Positions 41,214 through 62,088 of a stretch of 64,000 bases of DNA are shown in pieces. The DNA is from a virus, in IMG/VR virus record IMGVR_UViG_3300047483_000537, positions 32,600 through 96,599 of that record; one strand, 5' to 3'. The stretch's first letter is position 1. Each line of letters begins with the position of its first letter. The translations under genes were made by a program, and so were the position numbers. The notes beneath the pieces are model-generated. The model worked only from the letters and a program-made list of their open reading frames with translations. It was not told where the DNA came from and ran no database searches.

Positions 41214-41243
41214 ATTATAACATGGGTGGGTGTTGGCGGTCAA
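41214..41243 (-). promoter_or_regulatory. promoter for the terminase genes
   Basis: Minus strand TTGACC (238-243), 18-nt spacer, TATAAT (214-219). Start near 41207, about 15 nt before the terS start codon. Confidence 0.75.
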
Positions 41244-41493
41244 GTGTGATAATTTTGTGGAGGTTTGCAGGGTTGGGGGTTGATTCGGGGCGGATGTGGG
41301 CGATTGTGGACGATTTGGGCAATTTAGGGTCACGTTGTGTGTTGGCACCGTGGGTGTTTTGGGATTTTTATTGTGTAGGCCGCGTGTGTGTGGGTGCCAT
41401 GGCGTGTGTGAAAACAAAGGTCTACTAACCGCCCCTGGTCTGTGAACCAAAGTATTCATAGGGTAAACACCTAGAAAATAATCTATCAAATGC
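41222..41493. other. non-coding divergent region with strong G/T strand bias; possible packaging or origin site
   Basis: Between the leftward terminase promoter and the first rightward gene. From 41222 to about 41420 the plus strand is mostly G and T with few C or A (for example GGTTTGCAGGGTTGGGGGTT). One copy of TTTAGGGTCA lies at 41323-41332. No convincing reading frame is present. Position beside terS is typical for cos or pac sites, but no inverted cos arms were seen. Confidence 0.5.
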
Positions 41494-41521
41494 TTGCACG
41501 ACTAAAAAATCCTGATATAAT
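41494..41521 (+). promoter_or_regulatory. rightward promoter (TTGCAC-N16-TATAAT)
   Basis: TTGCAC (494-499), 16-nt spacer ending CCTGA, TATAAT (516-521) then AGA. The same CCTGN-TATAATAGA core recurs at 44346-44373 and 45738-45765. Confidence 0.75.
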
Positions 41522-41549
41522 AGATACATCGCAACAAGGAAACGATAAC

Positions 41550-41645
41550 ATGAAAAAGATTAAAGAATTTTTGGACTTGGCACTCTGCATGGGTTGCATT
41601 GTCTTGCCTTTTGTGTTATACTTTGCTTTTGTGATGAAGCCTTGA
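41550..41645 (+). CDS. 31-residue membrane peptide
   Basis: ATG at 41550 with AAGGA 9 nt upstream, TGA at 41643-41645. The product starts with a charged MKKIKEFLD stretch and continues with one hydrophobic helix (LALCMGCIVLPFVLYFAFVM), so it is a likely single-pass inner-membrane peptide. It is the first gene after the rightward promoter at 41494. Too short for family assignment. Confidence 0.55.
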   Translation: MKKIKEFLDLALCMGCIVLPFVLYFAFVMKP

Positions 41646-41679
41646 TTTTCCCTTTCCCTTAACTTTTTAGGATTTTAAA

Positions 41680-42003
41680 ATGACTGCAAAAACTGTAAAC
41701 TATACCGCTGAACAAACTGCCAAGATGGTAGCCGACTATGAGGCTGGCGTAACTGTAGAACAAATGGCTACAGAATTGGGTAAGACTGTTCGTTCTATTG
41801 TTGCCAAGCTCTCGCGTGAGAAGGTATACAAGGCTAAGACTTACGTTAGCAAAACTGGTGAGGCTGTAATTAAAAAAGATACAGTTGCCGACTACATTGG
41901 TGAGGCTTTGGGCTTGGCTGAGGCTGATACAGAATCGCTAACCAAAGCTAACAAAAATGCTTTGAAGGCTATTGCTGATTTCATCAAGGCTGAAAAGACC
42001 TGA
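41680..42003 (+). CDS. small HTH-like protein, paralogue 1 of 4
   Basis: 107 residues. Residues 1-60 (YTAEQTAKMVADYEAGVTVEQMATELGKTVRSIVAKLSREKVY) look like a helix-turn-helix of the kind that reads DNA, with the recognition helix GKTVRSIVAKLSRE. Then comes a KAKTYVSKTGEAV hairpin and a helical C-terminus with LTKANKNALKAI. It is closely similar to the proteins at 45801 and 47053 and more distantly to 48602 (minus strand). Related proteins occur in T4-like aquatic phages; function unknown, DNA binding is the likely role. AGGA ribosome site 8 nt upstream. Confidence 0.75.
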   Translation: MTAKTVNYTAEQTAKMVADYEAGVTVEQMATELGKTVRSIVAKLSREKVYKAKTYVSKTGEAVIKKDTVADYIGEALGLAEADTESLTKANKNALKAIADFIKAEKT

Positions 42004-42009
42004 TAGACT

Positions 42010-42037
42010 GTAGGGGCTTTATGCCCCTACTCTTTTC
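42010..42037 (+). terminator. intrinsic terminator after HTH paralogue 1
   Basis: GTAGGGGC / GCCCCTAC, an 8-bp perfect stem with a TTTAT loop, followed by TCTTTTCTG. Confidence 0.8.
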
Positions 42038-42042
42038 TGTGC

Positions 42043-42048
42043 TATAAT
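42043..42048 (+). promoter_or_regulatory. extended -10 promoter placed for a leaderless transcript
   Basis: TGC-TATAAT gives an extended -10 (TGn). No good -35 is visible. Only 6 nt separate TATAAT from the ATG at 42055, so the RNA would start at or next to the start codon. Confidence 0.55.
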
Positions 42049-42054
42049 ACACCT

Positions 42055-42186
42055 ATGAACACAAACACTTACATTGTATACAATATGTCGGGCGCATACT
42101 ATGATGCACTCATGAACTCATGCCCATCATGGGTTTGGACAGACCAAGAATTTGAAGATTATTTTGCAATGATGACAGGGGCATAA
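42055..42186 (+). CDS. 43-residue protein, probably leaderless
   Basis: ATG at 42055, TAA at 42184-42186. The product begins MNTNTYIVYNMSGAYYDALM and contains SCPSWVWTDQEFEDYFAMM. There is no Shine-Dalgarno sequence; TATAAT lies 6 nt before the ATG. The next gene starts 1 nt after its stop, so both may be translated from one RNA. Short acidic phage proteins of this kind are common; function unknown. Confidence 0.55.
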   Translation: MNTNTYIVYNMSGAYYDALMNSCPSWVWTDQEFEDYFAMMTGA

Positions 42187-42187
42187 T

Positions 42188-42517
42188 ATGTTTAATTTAT
42201 ACGATTATATTAAATACTTGAAATTAAAGCGGCCCGTTAATTTGCGGATTATAACCCGTAAAAATAAATGGGCAGATGCCGAATATGAGGCAGAATATTC
42301 AGATAATGGCCGACTGCTTGAACATTGCATTACTGTATACTATAAGAATAATACTCGTGATTTGGATGTATTAATCGCTCATGAATTAATCCATGCTTGG
42401 CAAGAAGAAAATAAAGCACAAGAAACACACGGGCCAGCGTTTATTAAATATGCCCGCAAAATGGAAAAACATTTCGGCTTAAAAGAAATTTATATTCCAG
42501 ATGTTGACTTAGAATGA
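42188..42517 (+). CDS. SprT-like zinc metalloprotease 1
   Basis: 109 residues. It has the SprT/Spartan signature: HELIHAW (H65, E66, H69) with a downstream HGPAFIKYARKM in which H81 is the third ligand. The protein is little more than the protease core, without the C-terminal zinc ribbon of cellular SprT. Cellular relatives cut DNA-protein crosslinks; a phage role in clearing host protein from DNA is plausible but unproven. A second SprT-like gene lies at 43746. Confidence 0.8.
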   Translation: MFNLYDYIKYLKLKRPVNLRIITRKNKWADAEYEAEYSDNGRLLEHCITVYYKNNTRDLDVLIAHELIHAWQEENKAQETHGPAFIKYARKMEKHFGLKEIYIPDVDLE

Positions 42518-42604
42518 ATACCTTTGGTTGCAAACAAAAATGAATACTTTTGTTTGCAATTTGGGGCGCCAATTATATCACATATAATTGGGGCGTGTCA
42601 AGGG
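42514..42604 (-). repeat. leftward promoter module, copy A
   Basis: On the minus strand TTGACA (596-601), 18-nt spacer, TATAAT (572-577), then TGGCGC. Downstream on the same strand (42528-42559) is a hairpin TTGCAAACAAAA / TTTTGTTTGCAA. The module fills the gap after the SprT-like gene and faces back into it. Confidence 0.8.
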
Positions 42605-42668
42605 TTTTGCGATTAATTTTTTCAATCGGGGCGATAGCGAAAATCAATCAAAATATTTGCTGTAGGCG

Positions 42669-42696
42669 TGGACAATCGGGGAAAATCGTGTATAAT
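42669..42696 (+). promoter_or_regulatory. rightward promoter for the HAD gene
   Basis: TGGACA (669-674), 16-nt spacer, TATAAT (691-696). Its downstream leader (ACACATCAACACAGAACAG) is similar to those at 44374 and 45766. Confidence 0.65.
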
Positions 42697-42726
42697 TGAC
42701 ACATCAACACAGAACAGAGGTTCAAA

Positions 42727-43203
42727 ATGGCTAAGATTACAAAAGTTTCAATTTACGACATGGATGGCACAATCGTTTGCAGTTTGCACAGATACCGCAC
42801 AATCGTTGACGATAATGGCGAACGCATTGATTTGGATTATTGGAGAGAAAACGAATATCGCGCAATGGATGATTCATTATTGCCATTGGCTGAACAATAT
42901 CGTAAAGATTTGAAGGATGAAAATACTTTTGTTATTATTGCAACTGCCCGTGTTTTGCGTGATGCTGATAATAAATTTATTCGTGATATTCTCGGTGAGC
43001 CTGATTATATTATCTCACGCATGGATGGAGATACTACTTCAGGCGGTAAATTAAAAATCGCTGGATTAACTAAGTTTTTTAATCTCAAGCCATTTCAAAA
43101 TGCTGAATTTACATTTTATGAGGATAATACTACATATTTAAAAGCGGTTTGTGACAGATTCAATATCCGTGGGGTTTATGTCCCAAGCAAGCAAGGACAC
43201 TAA
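42727..43203 (+). CDS. HAD-family phosphatase
   Basis: 158 residues with HAD motif I DMDGT (D11 nucleophile, D13), a threonine-rich motif II (VIIATARVL), a lysine region (GGKLKIAGLTKF) and an acidic motif III (EFTFYEDNTTYLKAV). The short insertion between motifs I and II resembles the phosphatase halves of polynucleotide kinases and phage nucleotidases. The substrate is unknown. GAGG ribosome site; followed by a UUCG-capped terminator. Confidence 0.8.
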   Translation: MAKITKVSIYDMDGTIVCSLHRYRTIVDDNGERIDLDYWRENEYRAMDDSLLPLAEQYRKDLKDENTFVIIATARVLRDADNKFIRDILGEPDYIISRMDGDTTSGGKLKIAGLTKFFNLKPFQNAEFTFYEDNTTYLKAVCDRFNIRGVYVPSKQGH

Positions 43204-43205
43204 TA

Positions 43206-43227
43206 TATAATCCCTTCGGGGATTATA
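43206..43227 (+). terminator. intrinsic hairpin after HAD gene (UUCG loop)
   Basis: TATAATCCC-TTCG-GGGATTATA, a 9-bp perfect stem with a TTCG tetraloop. The downstream T run is poor, so it may be a weak terminator or an RNA-end stabiliser. Confidence 0.65.
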
Positions 43228-43253
43228 ATATCAAATTAATCTGGAGAATATAA

Positions 43254-43571
43254 ATGCAACCATCACACGTTCTTGATTTTGTTGATTTTAAAATTGCACA
43301 ATATCAGCCCCGATATAATGCCAGTAAATCTAAATTTGATTCTATGCTGGAAATATATAAATCAGCATCGTGGTTTAGAAAATTTGTAACAGATAATCCA
43401 TGTGATTCAAATTGGGAATATTGGTGGGTTGGTTCTTGGATTGATGAATTAAATGAAATTCGCCGTGAAGCTGAATATAAAAACAAAATGGATTATATGA
43501 GAATGGATATTCCAGAAACTTGGCATAAACATTTTTATAAATGGGCACAAGATAATAGTATCCCATTTTAA
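43254..43571 (+). CDS. uncharacterised phage protein
   Basis: 105 residues rich in aromatic and charged residues (SASWFRKFVTDNPCDSNWEYWW, SWIDELNEIRREAEYKNKM, ETWHKHFYKW). No known motif. GGAG ribosome site 7-8 nt before the ATG. It lies between the HAD phosphatase and copy B of the leftward promoter module. Probably a cytoplasmic early protein. Confidence 0.6.
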   Translation: MQPSHVLDFVDFKIAQYQPRYNASKSKFDSMLEIYKSASWFRKFVTDNPCDSNWEYWWVGSWIDELNEIRREAEYKNKMDYMRMDIPETWHKHFYKWAQDNSIPF

Positions 43572-43656
43572 TACTTCAGTTTGCAAACCAAAAATGAATA
43601 CTTTGGTTTGCAAGTTTGCGCCAAAATTATATCATATAATTTTGGCCCGTGTCAAT
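43569..43656 (-). repeat. leftward promoter module, copy B
   Basis: Minus strand TTGACA (650-655), 18-nt spacer, TATAAT (626-631) then TTTGGCGC. Hairpin TTGCAAACCAAA / TTTGGTTTGCAA at 43581-43613. The AT core AAAATTATATCATATAATTTT is itself palindromic. Confidence 0.8.
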
Positions 43657-43745
43657 AGGGTAAACCCCTAATTTGCGTAAATACAACAAAAATAAATTTT
43701 TAAAAATTTTGTGCGTGTGGCGTGTTTTTCGTGTATAATTTCAGC

Positions 43746-44126
43746 ATGGACAAAAAAGCACTTTTAACCCTCATTCAGCGTGAAACTGTAATGATTTGGG
43801 ATTCACTTTGCGAAATTTATACACCTTTGGTTCACTACAATGAGCCAAAACTAGAACTTAACCCTTACACTTGGCGCACTGCGGGTTGCTGTTTTCAAGA
43901 AGAAAACCGCATACAATTGGGTTACAAATTTTTCAAAGCGAAAACAGAATACTTCAATTATATGATTGATATAATACTTCCGCATGAAATAATTCATCAA
44001 GCCGATTGGAATTTATTTGGCGTATCAGAAAAAAATTGTGGTCATGGTGAAAATTGGCAAAAAATCATGGTACAATATGGGCTTAAGGCTGATCCCTTTC
44101 ACTCAATGGAGATTTCTAGAAAATGA
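43746..44126 (+). CDS. SprT-like zinc metalloprotease 2, probably leaderless
   Basis: The start at 43746 (MDKKALLTLIQRE, 126 residues) is chosen because the longer frame from 43722 would cross the -10 box; TATAAT (43734-43739) lies 6 nt before this ATG and there is no ribosome site. Motifs: LPHEIIHQADW (H80, E81, H84) and CGHGENWQKIM (H100), the SprT-type zinc ligands. It differs clearly from the copy at 42188, so it is not a recent duplication. It overlaps the next gene as ATGA. Confidence 0.75.
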   Translation: MDKKALLTLIQRETVMIWDSLCEIYTPLVHYNEPKLELNPYTWRTAGCCFQEENRIQLGYKFFKAKTEYFNYMIDIILPHEIIHQADWNLFGVSEKNCGHGENWQKIMVQYGLKADPFHSMEISRK

Positions 44127-44338
44127 TTACTTTTGTTTCTTGGTTTGGTACTGTAGCAAGTATTTTGGGTTCGTTTGCAGTTGCAACCAAAATGTTTCAA
44201 ATTGGTTATGTTTTGTTTACTTTTGGTTCTTTGGCTTGGCTTTGGGTTGCGTTTGTCAAACGCGACAAGGCTTTGGGCGTTTTGAATGGCACTTTTTTTG
44301 TTGCCAACTTGTTGGGAATTTACAACAACTTTTTTTAA
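44123..44338 (+). CDS. small membrane protein
   Basis: 71 residues, almost wholly hydrophobic, with two or three transmembrane segments (residues ~5-20, 26-44 and 52-68) and a single KRDKAL cytoplasmic loop. The pattern WFGTVASILGSFAVA...NGTFFVANLLGIYN resembles short transporter-like membrane proteins seen in phages. Translation coupled to the SprT-like gene by a 4-nt overlap. Role unknown. Confidence 0.6.
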   Translation: MITFVSWFGTVASILGSFAVATKMFQIGYVLFTFGSLAWLWVAFVKRDKALGVLNGTFFVANLLGIYNNFF

Positions 44339-44345
44339 AAATTTG

Positions 44346-44373
44346 TTGCACAATCCCGAAAACCTGATATAAT
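44346..44373 (+). promoter_or_regulatory. rightward promoter (TTGCAC-N16-TATAAT)
   Basis: TTGCAC (346-351), 16-nt spacer ending CCTGA, TATAAT (368-373) then AGA. Drives the exonuclease gene at 44404. Confidence 0.8.
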
Positions 44374-44403
44374 AGAATCTTCAACAACACGGAAACCCCG
44401 AAA

Positions 44404-45102
44404 ATGGCTAAAAAACAATTCTTCGCTATCTTGGACACTGAAACCACAATCGAAAATACTGTGGCCGATTTTGCCATTATTATCGTTGACCGTCAAGGCA
44501 AAATTCATAATCAATGCGCTGTTTTGATTAATGGCCATTATAATAATTTTGAATTGTTTCACGATAAAAAAGCCAACGATATTTGGGGTTATTCTGGTTT
44601 GGAAAAACGCAAAGCCAATTATGTCAAAATGCTTGATAATGGCACACGTATGCTTGCATCAGTTAATGCGGTTAATAAATGGATTAATCAAGCCATTGGT
44701 AAATATGACCCTATTTTGACTGCATATAATCTGGCTTTTGATTTGGATAAATGTCAAAATACTGATATTGATTTGTCGGGTTTCTCTAATAAATTTTGCC
44801 TTTGGCAAGCGGCTATTGGCAATATCTGCAATAAAAAACAATATCGTCAATTTGTCCTTGATAATCATTTGTTTAATAAGCCTACAGTTAATCACAATAT
44901 GACATTTTCAACAACTGCCGAATCAGTTTGCGGGTTTATTGATGGTGAATTTAAAATCGAGCCTCATACTGCCCTTGAGGATGCACGCGATTTTGAATTG
45001 CCTATTTTGCAAGCCATTGTAAATAAGCGTGACTGGCGCGAGAAAATGACCCCATATAATTGGAAACAATTTCAAGTTAAAGATCACTTTAAAGCGGCTT
45101 AA
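44404..45102 (+). CDS. DEDDh 3'-5' exonuclease (DnaQ-like)
   Basis: 232 residues. Exo I: LDTETT (D11, E13); Exo II: AYNLAFDLDK (N109, D113); Exo III: HTALEDARD (H188, D193), completing a DEDDh active site. Such enzymes remove nucleotides from 3' ends of DNA or RNA, in proofreading or in degrading host nucleic acid. As a separate protein without a polymerase domain the substrate is unclear. It follows a strong promoter and is followed by a hairpin at 45109. Confidence 0.85.
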   Translation: MAKKQFFAILDTETTIENTVADFAIIIVDRQGKIHNQCAVLINGHYNNFELFHDKKANDIWGYSGLEKRKANYVKMLDNGTRMLASVNAVNKWINQAIGKYDPILTAYNLAFDLDKCQNTDIDLSGFSNKFCLWQAAIGNICNKKQYRQFVLDNHLFNKPTVNHNMTFSTTAESVCGFIDGEFKIEPHTALEDARDFELPILQAIVNKRDWREKMTPYNWKQFQVKDHFKAA

Positions 45103-45108
45103 TATAGG

Positions 45109-45141
45109 GGGCGATTATGAAAGGATTATATATAATCGCCC
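45109..45141 (+). promoter_or_regulatory. hairpin enclosing a start codon
   Basis: GGGCGATTAT / ATAATCGCCC, a 10-bp perfect stem with a 13-nt loop. It contains the ATG of the 37-residue frame (45117) and follows the exonuclease stop, so it could act as a weak terminator or hide the start site. Confidence 0.6.
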
Positions 45142-45230
45142 TCTGTTTGCATTTACTGGAAGATAAACGGCTTGATTCTAAAATAGATATTAAGCCATTT
45201 AATATTCAAACTCAAACGGAGATTATATAA
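45117..45230 (+). CDS. 37-residue frame coupled to the PQ-loop gene
   Basis: ATG 45117, TAA 45228-45230, where the last A is also the first base of the next ATG (TAATG). Product begins MKGLYIIALCLHLLEDKRL. A GGGG stretch precedes it. The frame could be a real leader peptide allowing translational control of the PQ-loop gene, but the start codon lies within a strong hairpin. Not certain to be expressed. Confidence 0.4.
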   Translation: MKGLYIIALCLHLLEDKRLDSKIDIKPFNIQTQTEII

Positions 45231-45478
45231 TGGAATTAATTGGATGGATTGGCGGGATTTTATTGGCATTTTGCGGATTACCTCAGGCAATAGAATCTTA
45301 TAAAACAAAAAATTCAGATGGATTAACTTGGGGGTTTTTGATTATGTGGGGCGTTGGAGAATTATTTACAATTGTTTATATTATCCCAAAATGGCATTGG
45401 CCACTCATATTTAATTATACTGCCAACATTATATTTATTTCGATTATCACATATTATAAGATTAAGCCAAAAAGATAA
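45230..45478 (+). CDS. PQ-loop (SemiSWEET-like) membrane protein
   Basis: 82 residues with three transmembrane helices. The first contains CGLPQAIESYKTKNSDGLTW, the proline-glutamine loop signature of PQ-loop/SemiSWEET transporters, and the third has the NYTANIIF pattern where an asparagine usually lines the pore. Such half-transporters dimerise to move sugars or other small solutes; a transport role in infection is speculative. Followed by a bidirectional terminator. Confidence 0.7.
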   Translation: MELIGWIGGILLAFCGLPQAIESYKTKNSDGLTWGFLIMWGVGELFTIVYIIPKWHWPLIFNYTANIIFISIITYYKIKPKR

Positions 45479-45502
45479 TAAAAACCCTTCGGGGTTTTTA
45501 TT
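45477..45502. terminator. bidirectional terminator (TTCG loop)
   Basis: AATAAAAACCC-TTCG-GGGTTTTTATT. The stem is flanked by A and T runs, so it can stop the rightward PQ-loop transcript and any leftward RNA from module C. Confidence 0.85.
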
Positions 45503-45518
45503 TTGGCCAAAATAAAAT

Positions 45519-45605
45519 GTAATACTTTTGTTTTCAAATAAAATTGAAAACAAAAGTATTACTTTCGGGGCGCCAATTATACTAGTATAATTGAGCCCGT
45601 GTCAA
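45519..45605 (-). repeat. leftward promoter module, copy C, with 19-bp hairpin
   Basis: Minus strand TTGACA (600-605), 18-nt spacer, TATAAT (576-581), then TGGCGC. Immediately downstream is a perfect 19-bp inverted repeat (519-537 and 544-562) with a 6-nt loop. RNA from this promoter would run about 90 nt to the bidirectional terminator at 45477. Confidence 0.85.
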
Positions 45606-45651
45606 GCTTTTTTTCATAGGTGTTTTCCCCTATGTTGTATTTTGGGCACAC

Positions 45652-45681
45652 TTGAAATTTTTTGGCTTTTGGGTGTATAAT
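45652..45681 (+). promoter_or_regulatory. rightward promoter, distal copy
   Basis: TTGAAA (652-657), 18-nt spacer, TATAAT (676-681) then AGAGGCTT; tandem with the promoter at 45738. Confidence 0.55.
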
Positions 45682-45737
45682 AGAGGCTTAGCAGGCGAAA
45701 AAGGAAAAGCGATAATAACCCCACAAATTCTAGGGGC

Positions 45738-45765
45738 TTGCAAGATTCCAAAAACCTGCTATAAT
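45738..45765 (+). promoter_or_regulatory. rightward promoter (TTGCAA-N16-TATAAT)
   Basis: TTGCAA (738-743), 16-nt spacer ending CCTGC, TATAAT (760-765) then AGAGGCTTCAACAC. Same class as 41494 and 44346. Confidence 0.8.
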
Positions 45766-45800
45766 AGAGGCTTCAACACACAACACAAAGGAAATTTAAA

Positions 45801-46127
45801 ATGACTGCAAAAACTGTAAACTACACCCCCGAGCAAACCACCAAAATGGTGGCCGATTATTTGGCTGGCGCTACTGCCGAAACAATCGCCGAAAATTTGG
45901 GCAAAACTGTCCGTTCGGTTGTGGCTAAATTGTCACGCGAAGGCGTTTATAAGGCTAAAACTTATGTTTCAAAAACTGGCGCTCCAGTTGTGAAAAAAGA
46001 TGCTCACGCCGATGCAATCGGCGCAATTCTCAAATTGTCAGAAAATGAAATCGAATCTCTGACAAAAGCCAATAAAACGGCACTGGAAAAAATCTTTTCC
46101 GCTTTGGCTAATTCAAAGCCAATTTAA
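45801..46127 (+). CDS. small HTH-like protein, paralogue 2 of 4
   Basis: 108 residues, closely similar to the protein at 41680 over the first 80 (identical MTAKTVNYT start, GKTVRSVVAKLSREGVYKAKTYVSKTGAPV). The last third diverges but keeps the ESLTKANKTALEKI helix. AAAGGA ribosome site, own tandem promoters, and a terminator at 46131. DNA binding is inferred from the helix-turn-helix-like middle. Confidence 0.75.
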   Translation: MTAKTVNYTPEQTTKMVADYLAGATAETIAENLGKTVRSVVAKLSREGVYKAKTYVSKTGAPVVKKDAHADAIGAILKLSENEIESLTKANKTALEKIFSALANSKPI

Positions 46128-46130
46128 ATA

Positions 46131-46150
46131 ATGGGGCTTTGCCCCATTTA
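46131..46150 (+). terminator. hairpin after HTH paralogue 2
   Basis: ATGGGGC-TTT-GCCCCAT perfect stem followed by TTAACC; weak T run, so partial termination or RNA stabilisation. Confidence 0.6.
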
Positions 46151-46171
46151 ACCCGATTAACTGGAGATAAT

Positions 46172-46423
46172 ATGCTTTTCAATTTGCCCTCATTTGCTGA
46201 TAAACCCGTGGTATTAACTTTCCTGCAACTGGGAATTAATCCACAAGATTATAATGGATTAACATTTGACAAAATCCGTCCAGAATATATTAATATTGCG
46301 GCTGATTATTTGCTAGATATTACTGGCGATTATGATTATGAGTTATTCCAGCATTATGAATGGGAAATTGATTATGTTCAGCGATTAATTAAAATCCCCA
46401 GATCCGCATTTGTTCCTGATTAA
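46172..46423 (+). CDS. uncharacterised acidic protein
   Basis: The start at 46172 (MLFNLPSFADKPVV, 83 residues) has GGAG 5-6 nt upstream; the in-frame ATG at 46139 lies inside the preceding hairpin and looks wrong. The protein is rich in Asp, Tyr and Ile with DYNGLTFDKIRPEYINIAADYLLDIT and GDYDYELFQHYEWEIDYVQRLI. No motif recognised. It is followed by a strong terminator. Confidence 0.55.
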   Translation: MLFNLPSFADKPVVLTFLQLGINPQDYNGLTFDKIRPEYINIAADYLLDITGDYDYELFQHYEWEIDYVQRLIKIPRSAFVPD

Positions 46424-46427
46424 TTTT

Positions 46428-46457
46428 AAAACCCCGAGATAATCGGGGTTTTATTTT
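46428..46457. terminator. bidirectional terminator
   Basis: AAAACCCCGA / TCGGGGTTTT with a 5-nt loop, T-rich on both strands. It ends the gene at 46423 and would also stop leftward RNA from module D. Confidence 0.85.
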
Positions 46458-46470
46458 GCCCAAAATTTTT

Positions 46471-46560
46471 GTAATACTTTTGTTTGCAAACCAAATTAGA
46501 AACAAAAGTATTACTTTTTGCTGCGCCAAAATTATACCATAATTTTGCGGCCCGTGTCAA
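46471..46560 (-). repeat. leftward promoter module, copy D
   Basis: Minus strand TTGACA (555-560), 18-nt spacer, TATAAT (531-536) then TTTGGCGC. The hairpin GTAATACTTTTGTTT / AAACAAAAGTATTAC (15 bp) lies at 46471-46514. The predicted leftward RNA ends at the terminator 46428, giving roughly 95 nt. Confidence 0.85.
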
Positions 46561-46766
46561 GATATTTTACAATTTTTTACAATTGCGTTGTTTTTTCACA
46601 ACATGAATACTTTGGTAGCACTTTTTCAGCCTGCATGAAAAATGAGTACTTTAGTACTACAGCAGCTTCGCTGCGCCAGTGGAAAACCTTCAAGTGCAAA
46701 ATCTTGATGGTTCCTGCGCCAGTGCGCGGTCAAGTGCAAATTCTTGCATGTGTGCGCTGCGCCAAT
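46561..46766. repeat. non-coding stretch with degenerate module and direct repeats
   Basis: Holds a diverged copy of the module's AATACTTTGG half (46603 onward), and two imperfect direct repeats of about 37 nt that begin CTGCGCCAGTG (46671 and 46714) and contain CAAGTGCAAA-TCTTG. CTGCGCCA occurs a third time at 46757. I see no credible gene here. Confidence 0.6.
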
Positions 46767-46796
46767 ATTATACAGTGCCAAAGCAATATGTGTCAA
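46767..46796 (-). repeat. leftward promoter module, copy E (no hairpin arm)
   Basis: Minus strand TTGACA (791-796), 18-nt spacer, TATAAT (767-772), then ATTGGCGCAGCGC. The hairpin that follows in other copies is replaced by the direct repeats at 46671-46750. Confidence 0.75.
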
Positions 46797-46813
46797 GAGA
46801 AAATTTTTTTATT

Positions 46814-46842
46814 TGAAGCGCGATCCCAAGTTTTGTATAATA
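46814..46842 (+). promoter_or_regulatory. rightward promoter
   Basis: TTGAAG (814-819), 17-nt spacer, TATAAT (837-842), 27 nt before the ATG at 46869. Confidence 0.75.
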
Positions 46843-46868
46843 TTTATATTGATTGAAAGGAATGGACG

Positions 46869-47003
46869 ATGACAGACAGCGAATTTTTCCGCCAAATTCA
46901 AGAGGACTGGTTCCACGAATTTGCTGGCGCAGAACTATCCGAAATCTTCGTGTGTACCAACCCACACATCGAAAATTTTGAATTTGACGATGTTCCCTTT
47001 TAA
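46869..47003 (+). CDS. 44-residue acidic protein
   Basis: ATG 46869 with AAAGGA 7 nt upstream; TAA 47001-47003. Product MTDSEFFRQIQEDWFHEF... ending IENFEFDDVPF, strongly acidic. An ATG slightly upstream in another frame gives no sensible product. The promoter for the next gene lies in its 3' end. Function unknown; acidic mini-proteins of early phage regions often bind host enzymes, but nothing here shows that. Confidence 0.6.
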   Translation: MTDSEFFRQIQEDWFHEFAGAELSEIFVCTNPHIENFEFDDVPF

Positions 47004-47012
47004 CAGTATAAT
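46984..47012 (+). promoter_or_regulatory. rightward promoter for HTH paralogue 3
   Basis: TTGACG (984-989), 17-nt spacer, TATAAT (47007-47012). The -35 is inside the coding end of the preceding mini-gene. Confidence 0.8.
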
Positions 47013-47052
47013 AATATCTTTAACAGCGCAGAAACCAACCAAAGGACATATG

Positions 47053-47361
47053 ATGACTGAAGCTACCAAAACCAACTACACCCCAGAACAAACCGCTGAA
47101 CTCGTGCAAGGCTACCAAGCTGGCGAGACCGTGGAAGTTCTGGCCACCCGCATGGGCAAAACTGTTCGCTCAGTGGTTGCCAAACTCTCACGCGAAGGCG
47201 TGTACGTGGCAAAAACCAAAGCTACCGGCGTGGCACGCGTCAAGAAAGCTGATCTGGTTGACCAACTTGCACACAAGTGCGGTGTGGCTCCAGAAGTGTT
47301 TGAGTCGCTGGAAAAAGCCAACCACGATGTGCTGGAGGCACTTGTGGCACGCTTGCAGTGA
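47053..47361 (+). CDS. small HTH-like protein, paralogue 3 of 4
   Basis: The start at 47053 (MTEATKTNYTPEQTAELV, 102 residues) has AAAGGA 6 nt upstream; the longer frame from 46921 crosses the promoter. The same architecture as 41680 and 45801: YTPEQTAELVQGYQAGETVEVLATRMGKTVRSVVAKLSREGVY is the HTH-like core, then a divergent basic middle (KTKATGVARVKKADL) and a LEKANHDVLEALVARL helix. GC content is higher than in the other two copies, suggesting independent histories. Confidence 0.75.
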   Translation: MTEATKTNYTPEQTAELVQGYQAGETVEVLATRMGKTVRSVVAKLSREGVYVAKTKATGVARVKKADLVDQLAHKCGVAPEVFESLEKANHDVLEALVARLQ

Positions 47362-47392
47362 TTGCCATGCCTGAGGGTCAAGAAATATTGGC

Positions 47393-47421
47393 TTGATCTT
47401 CAGGGTTAATCACTGTATAAT
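47393..47421 (+). promoter_or_regulatory. rightward promoter for a short RNA
   Basis: TTGATC (393-398), 17-nt spacer, TATAAT (416-421). Start near 47428. No ordinary gene follows. Confidence 0.75.
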
Positions 47422-47427
47422 ATATAC

Positions 47428-47562
47428 TTAGACAGTCGGGAAAGGCTTTAAAAATGACAAAATCTTTGTCGAGCCTGTTTAGCGACAGCAGCCCACCTCA
47501 CTAACCAGCAATTAGATTGCAACTATCTGTGTGCTAGCCTGTTCGCAACGACTGTTTATTTT
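47428..47562 (+). ncRNA. candidate structured RNA, ~135 nt
   Basis: The transcript from the promoter at 47393 would begin ATACTTAGACAGTCG and its 5' ACAGTCG pairs with CGACTGT at 47549-47556, followed by TTTATTTTCTC. Inside, GACAAA-ATC-TTTGTC makes a hairpin near 47455. A 16-codon frame (MTKSLSSLFSDSSPPH) starts at 47454 but may be fortuitous. The enclosing stem plus T-rich end suggest a compact RNA; no family recognised. Confidence 0.45.
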
Positions 47563-47565
47563 CTC

Positions 47566-47594
47566 TTGATTTAGTTACCGTTTTACTGTATAAT
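47566..47594 (+). promoter_or_regulatory. promoter of the large non-coding RNA
   Basis: TTGATT (566-571), 17-nt spacer, TATAAT (589-594); start near 47601. Confidence 0.8.
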
Positions 47595-47600
47595 TATTAT

Positions 47601-48440
47601 ATTGGGTGACAGCGGTGCAAAAGCAGCGTCTTAATTGTGGGAAATTACCAACCGAGCCACAGCCCCAACGAATTCGGTGTTATGCGACCAATTTGCGAAT
47701 TGGATAACAACTTAATTGCGACCGAAGCTAGTCGCAGCCAACTTAACCCTCTGATGAGCTGATGCAAGTTCAGCGAAACTCTAAACCTCAGTGCCAGTTT
47801 GCAGACACCTTCCCAATTGTCTCGCTGGCGCAGTTTAGGGTCAGGGCGAAAACCAGGAGCTAGTCTCCTGAAATGAGTAGTCTTAGTGAGCTCTCAACAC
47901 TATACCCGAGTCGCCTTATCCTGTACCGGCGTAAAATGGTCTTAATATCTAGGTTGGTAGCCTATATCTACCCGAGTAATAGCAACCCGTAAGGTGGCTG
48001 GTTACCCTACCTATAAGGGCACATGTAGGTCCTGCACGTGACCCTAAACCGTAGCCGTTTTGGCCCTCGTTACTGTGGCTCGACCCTAAGTCGTAAAAAG
48101 CGGCGCTGGCAACCCCAGTGCCACAGTGGTTGATGACCCCAACAATCTGTCCAGGTCGTGACATAAAACATCCAGGGCTGTGGAGCCGAACCCATACCAC
48201 GAGTGATACTCGAACCTCATCAGTGCAGGCGTTGGAAGCGTAGCACACAAAGTCTCACCTAATGTGGAACGCAGTCGCCAACTCAACCAAGTTGGGCAGT
48301 CTAGTACGATTTAGGGTCAAGCAGTAAGTGCAAGTGGTTCTTGCCGGTTTAGTCTTGAACAGAGCAACTAAAAACTTGTTAGTACCTGGACGCAGGCATA
48401 GTTCACGAGCCCCCAAGATTAGCTGTCTTAGGGGCTTTTG
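47601..48440 (+). ncRNA. large structured non-coding RNA, ~840 nt (GOLLD-like class possible)
   Basis: No sustained reading frame on either strand fits, yet the stretch has its own promoter (47566) and a strong terminator (48408-48440). I could place many local stems by hand: GTTAT-CCAATT..AATTGG-ATAAC (47679-47708), TGCGAC/GTCGCA (47717-47736), GCTGA/TCAGC (47758-47774), CAGGAG/CTCCTG (47854-47870), a 10-bp interrupted stem (47976-48005), GGCGCTGG/CCAGTGCC (48102-48122), CGAGT/ACTCG (48200-48212), CCAACT/AGTTGG (48278-48295) and GCAAG/CTTGC (48330-48344). A long-range TTTAGGGTCA/TGACCCTAAA pairing (47834, 48039) is possible. Size, phage location and a tRNA array elsewhere recall GOLLD RNAs; not verified. 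Confidence 0.7.
48408..48440 (+). terminator. intrinsic terminator of the large RNA
   Basis: AGCCCC(C)AAGA / TCTT(A)GGGGCT stem with a 7-nt loop, followed by TTTTGTTTT. Confidence 0.9.
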
Positions 48441-48458
48441 TTTTGCTTATTCTGCGCC

Positions 48459-48488
48459 ATTATACCAGTGCAAAACCTTTGTTGTCAA
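48459..48488 (-). repeat. leftward promoter module, copy F (antisense to the large RNA)
   Basis: Minus strand TTGACA (483-488), 18-nt spacer, TATAAT (459-464) then GGCGCAGAATAAGC. It points into the 3' end of the large RNA. No long hairpin of the A-D type follows. Confidence 0.75.
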
Positions 48489-48540
48489 GTGTGTTTTCCG
48501 CAACTTGACCCTAAATTAACGCAAACAGCACACGCAAAAA

Positions 48541-48601: not shown

Positions 48602-48925
48602 TCACGATTTAGGGTCAGATTGGGTAGCTTTTTCTAAGGCACGTTCAATCATAACTAACACAGTCTTGTTGACTTTCTCCAGCGACTCCAACAACTCTAA
48701 GTTAGCGTCTAGGAGTGTGGCAATGCGTTCAATATGCTCGGCTTTTTTCACCGGAATTTCACCACGCTTGTTTAAGTAGGATTTTTTCTGGTAGACTCCA
48801 AGGCTCGATAGCTTGGCAATTATGCTACGCTCTGGCACTTCGAGCTGAGCACTTAATTCCAGCACCGAAACGCCGGAGTTGTAATCTTGGACCATACGGT
48901 CACAAATTTCTTTGGTGTATCTCAT
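48602..48925 (-). CDS. small HTH-like protein, paralogue 4 of 4 (diverged)
   Basis: 107 residues with the same plan as the three plus-strand paralogues: an HTH-like N-terminal half (YTKEICDRMVQDYNSGVSVLELSAQLEVPERSIIAKLSSLGVYQKKSY), a linker ending GEIPVKKAEHI, and a C-terminal LESLEKVNKTVLVMIERAL helix. Identity is much lower, so it is an older branch. It is the last gene of the leftward operon, immediately before the terminator at 48541. A TTTAGGGTCA copy overlaps its last codons. Confidence 0.7.
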   Translation of the reverse strand: MRYTKEICDRMVQDYNSGVSVLELSAQLEVPERSIIAKLSSLGVYQKKSYLNKRGEIPVKKAEHIERIATLLDANLELLESLEKVNKTVLVMIERALEKATQSDPKS

Positions 48926-61923: not shown

Positions 61924-62088
61924 GGGTCGGTAGCTTAACTTGGTTAAAGCGCAAATCCGGACTACAAACCCTTCACCTAGTAGCCTCTCCTCTGCCGCAA
62001 GCACGAAGGTAACGGTGGGCTGAATTCGAATATACGCTTATGGGATTGTAGAATTTTAGAGAAGCAGGTTCAAGCCCTGCCTGACCCA
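61924..62088 (+). tRNA. interrupted tRNA, Tyr-like (GUA) with ~89-nt insertion in the anticodon loop
   Basis: Acceptor GGGTCGG (61924-61930) pairs with CTGACCC (62081-62087), discriminator A, encoded CCA 62089-62091. D-arm GCTTAACTTGGTTAAAGC; T-arm GCAGG-TTCAAGC-CCTGC. The half-stems CAAAT (61952-61956) and ATTTT (62053-62057) with loop TTGTAGA (62046-62052) give anticodon GUA. Removing 61957-62045 leaves a 76-nt tRNA. In the insert CTACAA-A-CCC (61962-61971) pairs with GGG-A-TTGTAG (62042-62051), covering the anticodon. One C-T mismatch at the stem base and a short variable loop (unusual for bacterial Tyr) leave doubt. Confidence 0.55.
61957..62045 (+). other. putative intron-like insertion in the tRNA anticodon loop
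   Basis: 89 nt, far below the size of group I introns and lacking their core motifs as far as I can see. Its 5' part pairs with the anticodon region. Boundaries are inferred from the standard 76-nt length and could shift by a few bases. Confidence 0.45.

What the first reader, a model, noticed from the sequence alone, without database searches (positions are those of the whole stretch)
42514..48488. Six leftward consensus promoter modules placed against the direction of the genes
Copies at 42514, 43569, 45519, 46471, 46767 and 48459 each carry TTGACA-N18-TATAAT on the minus strand followed within 0-3 nt by TGGCGC. All six spacers are 18 nt, while most other promoters here have 17. Four are followed by 12-19 bp hairpins built from the same CTTTTGTTTGCAA-like words. 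All neighbouring genes are on the plus strand, so RNA from them is antisense or free-standing. In copies C and D a bidirectional terminator would stop it after roughly 90 nt, giving a small hairpin RNA. This could be a phage sRNA family, a transcription-interference device, or repressor sites (the AT cores are palindromic).
Basis: seen in the sequence. Interest (0 to 1): 0.78.

Follow-up and report, generated by a model that had tools for sequence, protein, structure and literature searches.

The report
Opposing promoters heading phage gene units
In a family of freshwater T5-like bacterial viruses, most units of probable first-expressed genes start with an almost perfect host-type promoter that points the wrong way and is followed by a hairpin, which suggests the virus uses opposing transcription to fence off or shut down these genes.

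Summary
The window is part of a 96.6-kb phage record; all six exact TTGACA-N18-TATAAT matches lie on the minus strand at 42.5-48.5 kb, none on the plus strand. In 80 relatives the minus strand carries 310 exact copies and the plus strand 2. Upstream of transcription-unit heads, agreement with TTGACA+TATAAT+GGCGC is bimodal (48 of 61 PNK-like genes match 17/17); operon-internal genes mostly lack it. The elements carry UP-like A-tracts, TGn-10 in 71%, a GC-rich discriminator, a covarying palindrome across the -10 (TTT/AAA 93/93, ATT/AAT 15/16), and a near-perfect hairpin just downstream in 71% of distinct sites (125 arm sequences). The block lies where T5 keeps its pre-early DNA; gene units are shuffled around the elements. 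Best reading: a multi-copy array of strong antisense promoters, working like lambda pO, that insulate or shut off rightward pre-early units. Promoter identity is well supported; the function is inferred. A trans-acting sRNA family is less likely (terminator within 120 nt in only 41%; no RNA-strand bias in arm mismatches). The exact patterns used were not found in T5's terminal repeat or in 84,980 bacterial species. A covarying hammerhead ribozyme lies beside the array.

The parts
42572..42601 (-). Leftward promoter A (TTGACA-N18-TATAAT), palindrome over the -10, GCGCCA at 42566-42571
42528..42559 (-). Hairpin at the start of the leftward transcript of A (TTGCAAACAAAA ... TTTTGTTTGCAA)
   Evidence: z -3.67
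43626..43655 (-). Leftward promoter B, palindrome CCAAAATTATAT/ATATAATTTTGG, GCGCC at 43618-43622
43581..43613 (-). Hairpin downstream of B
   Evidence: z -4.06
45576..45605 (-). Leftward promoter C, palindrome CAATTATAC/GTATAATTG, GCGCC at 45570-45574
45519..45562 (-). 19-bp hairpin downstream of C
   Evidence: z -8.29
45477..45502 (-). Terminator-like stem that would end the leftward RNA of C at about 90 nt
46531..46560 (-). Leftward promoter D, palindrome CAAAATTAT/ATAATTTTG, GCGCC at 46523-46527
46471..46514 (-). Hairpin downstream of D
   Evidence: z -6.82
46429..46453 (-). GC stem with T run on both sides, probable bidirectional terminator after D
   Evidence: fold; read by eye for the T runs
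46767..46796 (-). Leftward promoter E (second class: no palindrome, GCACTG word in the spacer), GCGCC at 46759-46763
46660..46750 (-). Degenerate repeats of the TTTTGCACT / CACTGGCGCAG words downstream of E
48459..48488 (-). Leftward promoter F (second class, GCACTGG in the spacer), GCGCC at 48454-48458
41214..41243 (-). Related, sense-oriented leftward promoter of the small terminase gene (TTGACC-N18-TATAAT, discriminator TGCCCC)
41490..48490 (.). Block read as the pre-early (first-step-transfer) region by synteny with T5
   Evidence: inference

Best explanation
Each element is a strong sigma70-type promoter firing leftward, against the genes. The set stands at the heads of rightward transcription units in the probable pre-early (first-step-transfer) block of a T5-like phage lineage. 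Shown by sequence: near-invariant hexamers 18 bp apart, UP-like A-tracts, TGn-10, GC-rich discriminator, covarying palindrome over the -10, a hairpin at the start of the leftward transcript, one strand, one block. Inferred: RNA polymerase starts near GGCGC and makes a hairpin-led antisense RNA. Where the upstream unit ends in a bidirectional terminator (C, D) the RNA stops at about 90 nt; elsewhere (A, B) it runs antisense into the upstream gene. By opposing rightward polymerases it insulates each unit from its upstream neighbour and/or shuts the pre-early genes off when these promoters dominate, much as lambda pO opposes pR. I put promoter identity at about 0.85 and the interference or insulation role at about 0.45-0.5.
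For: Exact copies 310 minus against 2 plus in 80 relatives. Unbiased anchors: -10 is TATAAT in 308 of 375, -35 is TTGACA in 308 of 368, spacer 18/17/16 = 308/26/1. Bimodal perfect-or-absent conservation upstream of unit heads and near-absence upstream of operon-internal genes. In 185 of 331 plus-plus gaps of at least 120 nt and 0 of 372 gaps under 60 nt. UP-like A-tracts, TGn-10 in 175 of 248, sense promoters weaker (28 of 196 score 12 or more of 13; note that the leftward set was selected for perfect hexamers). Fixed 18-bp linear spacing while the palindrome loop varies from 3 to 8 nt fits a DNA promoter, not an RNA motif. GC-rich discriminators against GC-poor ones in the sense promoters. 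Precedent: lambda pO opposes pR transcription (PMC3985674).
Against: No RNA data. No rightward-terminator deficit that would clearly call for insulation (32% with a terminator before the element, 42% in gaps without it). 146 plus-plus gaps of at least 120 nt lack the element. The covarying palindrome has no role in a plain promoter, and the N18 spacer is not the sigma70 optimum. The last copy (F) is not at the head of a rightward gene.
Confidence: 0.5

Rival explanations
1. A family of small hairpin RNA genes acting in trans (on host or phage RNAs or on a protein); the promoter exists to make a 60-90 nt RNA.
For: Hairpin right after the predicted start in 176 of 248 distinct sites; mean folding z -4.1; terminators within 120 nt enriched, 41% against 16%; C and D have the full promoter-hairpin-terminator layout.
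Against: Most sites lack a nearby terminator; 125 different arm sequences; mismatches in arms show no strand preference (G.T 11, A.C 13); the E and F class has no such hairpin of its own.
Confidence: 0.15
2. DNA-binding sites: phage regulators such as the D5-like proteins, of which the block carries several paralogues, bind the palindromes or GCACTGG words and repress or roadblock transcription; the promoter look is secondary or the promoter is itself the target.
For: D5-like family f0 with 203 members in 81 sequences; palindrome or repeated word inside the promoter spacer; intergenic sites of one orientation resemble stoperators (PMC9283540).
Against: Palindrome arms covary instead of keeping one sequence and the loop varies from 3 to 8 nt; the most constant bases are exactly the two sigma70 hexamers at 18 bp.
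Confidence: 0.15
3. Recombination cassettes: conserved intergenic modules that let units shuffle by homologous recombination, with the promoter carried along (PeSL-like).
For: 70 different gene-family pairs flank the element and unit order differs between relatives.
Against: Shuffling does not need perfect hexamers with variable surroundings; the arms differ between copies within one genome, which reduces homology; the promoter points away from the gene it precedes.
Confidence: 0.1
4. Extra leftward promoters for the late (terminase) operon that lies directly to the left.
For: Same direction; the terminase promoter shares N18, TGn and a GC-rich discriminator in close relatives; the terminator scan lists no leftward terminator between promoter B and the terminase gene.
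Against: C and D face strong terminators; the operon has its own promoter; copies stay tied to early unit heads when these are reshuffled.
Confidence: 0.06
5. Site-specific single-strand nick sites (as in T5), with GGCGC plus hairpin as the recognition site.
For: T5 nicks are annotated in the minus strand, directly before GCGC, and the terminal-repeat nick is followed by a perfect palindrome.
Against: The published consensus R/GCGCRGG (PMC3517423) is not met: GCGC is followed by AGA, AGC, AAA or CCC in the six copies. T5 nick sites have no promoter hexamers there, and share a GTAA element about 30 nt upstream that I do not see here.
Confidence: 0.03

Closest known systems
Lambda promoter pO and the OOP antisense RNA
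   Same: A leftward promoter just after a rightward gene makes a short structured RNA and opposes rightward transcription; pO mutation raises pR transcription past pO (PMC3985674).
   Different: Lambda has one copy; here six or so per genome, with near-perfect consensus, a palindrome over the -10, and no conserved RNA sequence or universal terminator.
PeSL (promoter early stem-loop) cassettes of T4-type phages
   Same: Repeated intergenic promoter plus stem-loop modules in a region of gene shuffling (reported by Arbiol 2010 and Comeau 2014, as cited in PMC4503421).
   Different: As I know them, PeSL promoters point toward the downstream gene; these point away from it.
Stoperators of cluster A mycobacteriophages
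   Same: Many intergenic sites in one orientation relative to transcription (PMC9283540); the plus-strand word TGTCAAG recalls the stoperator core (from memory).
   Different: Those are 13-bp asymmetric repressor sites; here the constant bases are two sigma70 hexamers 18 bp apart and the phage shows lytic T5-like content.
T5 pre-early region and its sigma70 promoters
   Same: Same genome position by synteny; T5 is transcribed by host sigma70 polymerase, and its promoter classes differ mainly in the discriminator (PMC7472727).
   Different: No exact or GGCGC-bearing copy in the T5 stretches scanned.

Membership tests
sigma70-type promoter | TTGACA and TATAAT at 16-18 bp | tested here: met
sigma70-type promoter | conserved across relatives while surroundings change | tested here: met
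sigma70-type promoter | starts RNA in vivo or in vitro | not testable with these tools
   no expression data
OOP-like antisense promoter | opposes a rightward unit, near the 3' end of the upstream gene | tested here: met
OOP-like antisense promoter | short RNA ended by an intrinsic terminator | tested here: inconclusive
   41% within 120 nt against 16% at random spots; C and D yes, A and B no
OOP-like antisense promoter | lowers rightward expression | not testable with these tools
   needs reporters or infection data
PeSL cassette | repeated promoter plus stem-loop between shuffled genes | tested here: met
PeSL cassette | promoter reads into the downstream gene (definition from memory) | tested here: not met
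   the element reads the other way
trans-acting sRNA family | RNA-strand-specific structure conservation (wobbles on one strand) | tested here: not met
   G.T 11 against A.C 13; small numbers
stoperator | 13-bp asymmetric repressor site as the conserved unit | tested here: not met
   two hexamers 18 bp apart plus GGCGC are the conserved unit
T5 single-chain interruption | R/GCGCRGG | tested here: not met

The most novel reading that the evidence does not exclude
A dedicated antisense transcription system confined to one genome block: a promoter class marked by N18, TGn and a GGCGC discriminator is switched on after first-step transfer and closes the rightward pre-early units together, with the self-complementary -10 region acting as part of the switch. 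This would be a mechanism for the unexplained shut-off of pre-early genes in T5-like phages.
Probability: 0.2. Interest if true: 0.82.

Novelty: new variant of a known kind. Interest (0 to 1): 0.62.

Why it matters
How T5 switches between pre-early, early and late transcription with host sigma70 polymerase is stated to be unknown (PMC7472727). Here a whole phage lineage keeps its most consensus-like promoters pointing against its probable host-takeover genes, at the heads of most units. If they act by opposing transcription, this would be an array-scale use of antisense promoters in a lytic phage. The module is compact enough to test in E. coli reporters.

Tried and rejected
Nucleotide match to named phages: none; exonuclease tblastn in named phages: none. 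Element in bacterial genomes: 0 with the one pattern used. T5 A2 protein against the block's D5-like protein: no similarity. T5 nick-site reading: consensus not met. Insulation by replacing missing terminators: only a weak difference. A hairpin tied exclusively to the element: not exclusive, since gaps without it also hold hairpins when the whole gap is scanned. Coding on the minus strand downstream of the promoters: the listed ORFs are short, while Pfam and PHROG matches support overlapping plus genes. Window scan with 2 mismatches: at chance level. Rfam at gathering score: tRNAs only.
Full report
WHAT THE WINDOW IS. The window is bases 32600-96599 of a 96.6-kb virus record. Gene content is T5-like: tape measure, portal and terminase genes on the minus strand, D5-like regulators, thymidylate synthase and tRNAs. 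The large terminase is about 50% identical to that of 113-117 kb Vibrio phages. In T5 the order is terminase, a few genes, terminal repeat with pre-early genes, a 1-kb 'injection stop signal', then minus-strand early genes. Here it is terminase (39.4-41.2 kb), a plus-strand block (41.5-47.4 kb), a 1-kb non-coding stretch (about 47.4-48.45 kb), then minus-strand genes. I therefore read the block as pre-early, first-step-transfer DNA. This is synteny, not proof; no terminal repeat is visible in the assembly.

OBSERVATION. All six elements are present as described. They are the only exact TTGACA-N18-TATAAT matches in the record, all on one strand. The sixth lies between a plus-strand non-coding region and a minus-strand gene. 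A seventh, weaker N18 promoter (TTGACC, 41214-41243) stands in sense direction before the small terminase gene.

CONSERVATION. Eighty relatives of the block's exonuclease gene were fetched. They hold 310 exact N18 copies on the minus strand and 2 on the plus strand. In twelve long records searched whole, the copies cluster in one block (gene maps); one record has a single copy on the opposite strand. To avoid counting only what was selected, I anchored on parts. With TTGACA and GGCGC fixed, the -10 is TATAAT in 308 of 375; with TATAAT and GGCGC fixed, the -35 is TTGACA in 308 of 368; spacers are 18 (308), 17 (26) and 16 (1). Taking 320 bases upstream of given genes regardless of match, agreement with the 17 fixed bases is bimodal: PNK-like gene 48/61 perfect, SprT-like 37/52, f14 14/17, exonuclease 22/65, but PQ-loop 2/55 and f7 1/48, which are mostly operon-internal. 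The elements are in 185 of 331 plus-plus gaps of at least 120 nt and in none of 372 gaps under 60 nt, between 70 different family pairs. So they mark heads of transcription units, and the units are shuffled between relatives. Two patterns found 88 and at least 120 viral stretches; of 70 newly fetched loci, 69 encode a block or terminase-region protein. One pattern found nothing in bacterial genomes.

ANATOMY. Going leftward: A-tracts at UP-element positions, TTGACA, often CGGGC, the spacer, TGn-TATAAT (TGn in 175 of 248), 0-3 nt, GGCGC. In most copies the -10 is one arm of a palindrome whose other arm lies in the spacer. The outer arms covary: TTT with AAA 93/93, ATT with AAT 15/16. The loop varies from 3 to 8 nt while the hexamer distance stays 18, so the fixed quantity is linear promoter spacing. 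A second class (E, F) has no palindrome but a GCACTG word, and E is followed by degenerate repeats of that word. Just past GGCGC (median 3 nt) comes a near-perfect hairpin in 176 of 248 distinct sites, median arm 12 bp, with 125 arm sequences; the same test finds 19 of 248 upstream of the -35 and 6 of 248 in shuffled sequence. The first 60 nt fold with mean z -4.1. Mismatches in the arms are G.T 11 and A.C 13 on the leftward strand: no strand preference. This fits selection on DNA or on both RNAs and gives no support for a leftward RNA family as such. A leftward terminator within 120 nt is found in 41% against 16% at random spots.

SENSE PROMOTERS. Rightward promoters are also there, divergent from the elements, but weaker (28 of 196 score 12 or more of 13), with GC-poor discriminators (35% against 69%). 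T5 early and late promoters are said to differ mainly in the discriminator, and a T5 protein acts at that region (PMC7472727). A timed promoter class is therefore plausible here; that is inference.

MECHANISM. Best supported: strong opposing promoters that limit rightward transcription, as insulators between shuffled units and/or as a shut-off of pre-early genes. Shown: promoter sequence, direction, placement, conservation, palindrome, hairpin. Inferred: activity, timing, RNA length, effect on the genes. Lambda pO is a tested precedent for an opposing promoter lowering rightward transcription (PMC3985674). A weak point is that gaps with the element do not clearly lack rightward terminators, and hairpins are not exclusive to them.

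NOVELTY. Promoters, antisense promoters and promoter/stem-loop cassettes are known kinds. An array of near-perfect promoters aimed against most units of a phage's early region, with a covarying palindrome in the promoter, was not found in the literature searched; that library lacks most subscription journals. I file it as a new variant of a known kind.

SIDE FINDING. The adjacent 1-kb non-coding region contains a hammerhead ribozyme motif of type I layout (window 47747-47846, cut expected after 47842). The core is nearly invariant, and stems II and III covary in 13 sequences (30 cells with two-sided changes against 10.1 in shuffles; 91% of cells paired against 24-44% when slid). Rfam gives only a sub-threshold hit. 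The core with stem II is in 60 loci (overlapping contigs included) and one pattern finds 42 viral stretches.

LIMITS. No expression data, no isolate, host unknown, relatives not independent, ORFs called by a simple ATG rule, paralogous and orthologous copies pooled in the logos, overlapping contigs possible among loci.

Noticed in passing
window 47747-47846 (+), inside the non-coding region about 47410-48445: Hammerhead ribozyme motif: CTGATGA core, stem II, GAAA, stem III with a 60-nt insert, GUC cleavage triplet, stem I. Stems II and III covary in 13 relatives; Rfam gives only a sub-threshold hit.
   Followed up: partly
window about 47410-48445 (+): A roughly 1-kb non-coding region, present between the same genes in 28 sequences including the window, in the position of the T5 injection stop signal, with repeated TTTAGGGTC / GACCCTAAA words; probably one large structured RNA.
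   Followed up: partly
window 41680-42003, 45801-46127, 47053-47361 (+) and 48602-48925 (-): Four paralogues of one small protein family in or next to the block; two of them (41680, 45801) match the D5-like regulator family.
   Followed up: no
intergenic regions right of each element, for example 42602-42690, 43656-43735, 45606-45676: Between the leftward and rightward promoters lie interchangeable sequence types (TGTAACA-N12-TGTTACA palindrome, CGATTG palindrome, TAGGG...CCCTA hairpin, AT-rich tract) that appear before different genes in different relatives.
   Followed up: no
window 46600-46750: Array of degenerate direct repeats (TTTTGCACT / CACTGGCGCAG words) downstream of promoter E, also in relatives; they look like the promoter with its TATAAT removed.
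   Followed up: no
window 61924-62088 (+): Rfam tRNA match spanning 165 nt (35.6 bits) that ARAGORN does not call: an interrupted or unusual tRNA.
   Followed up: no
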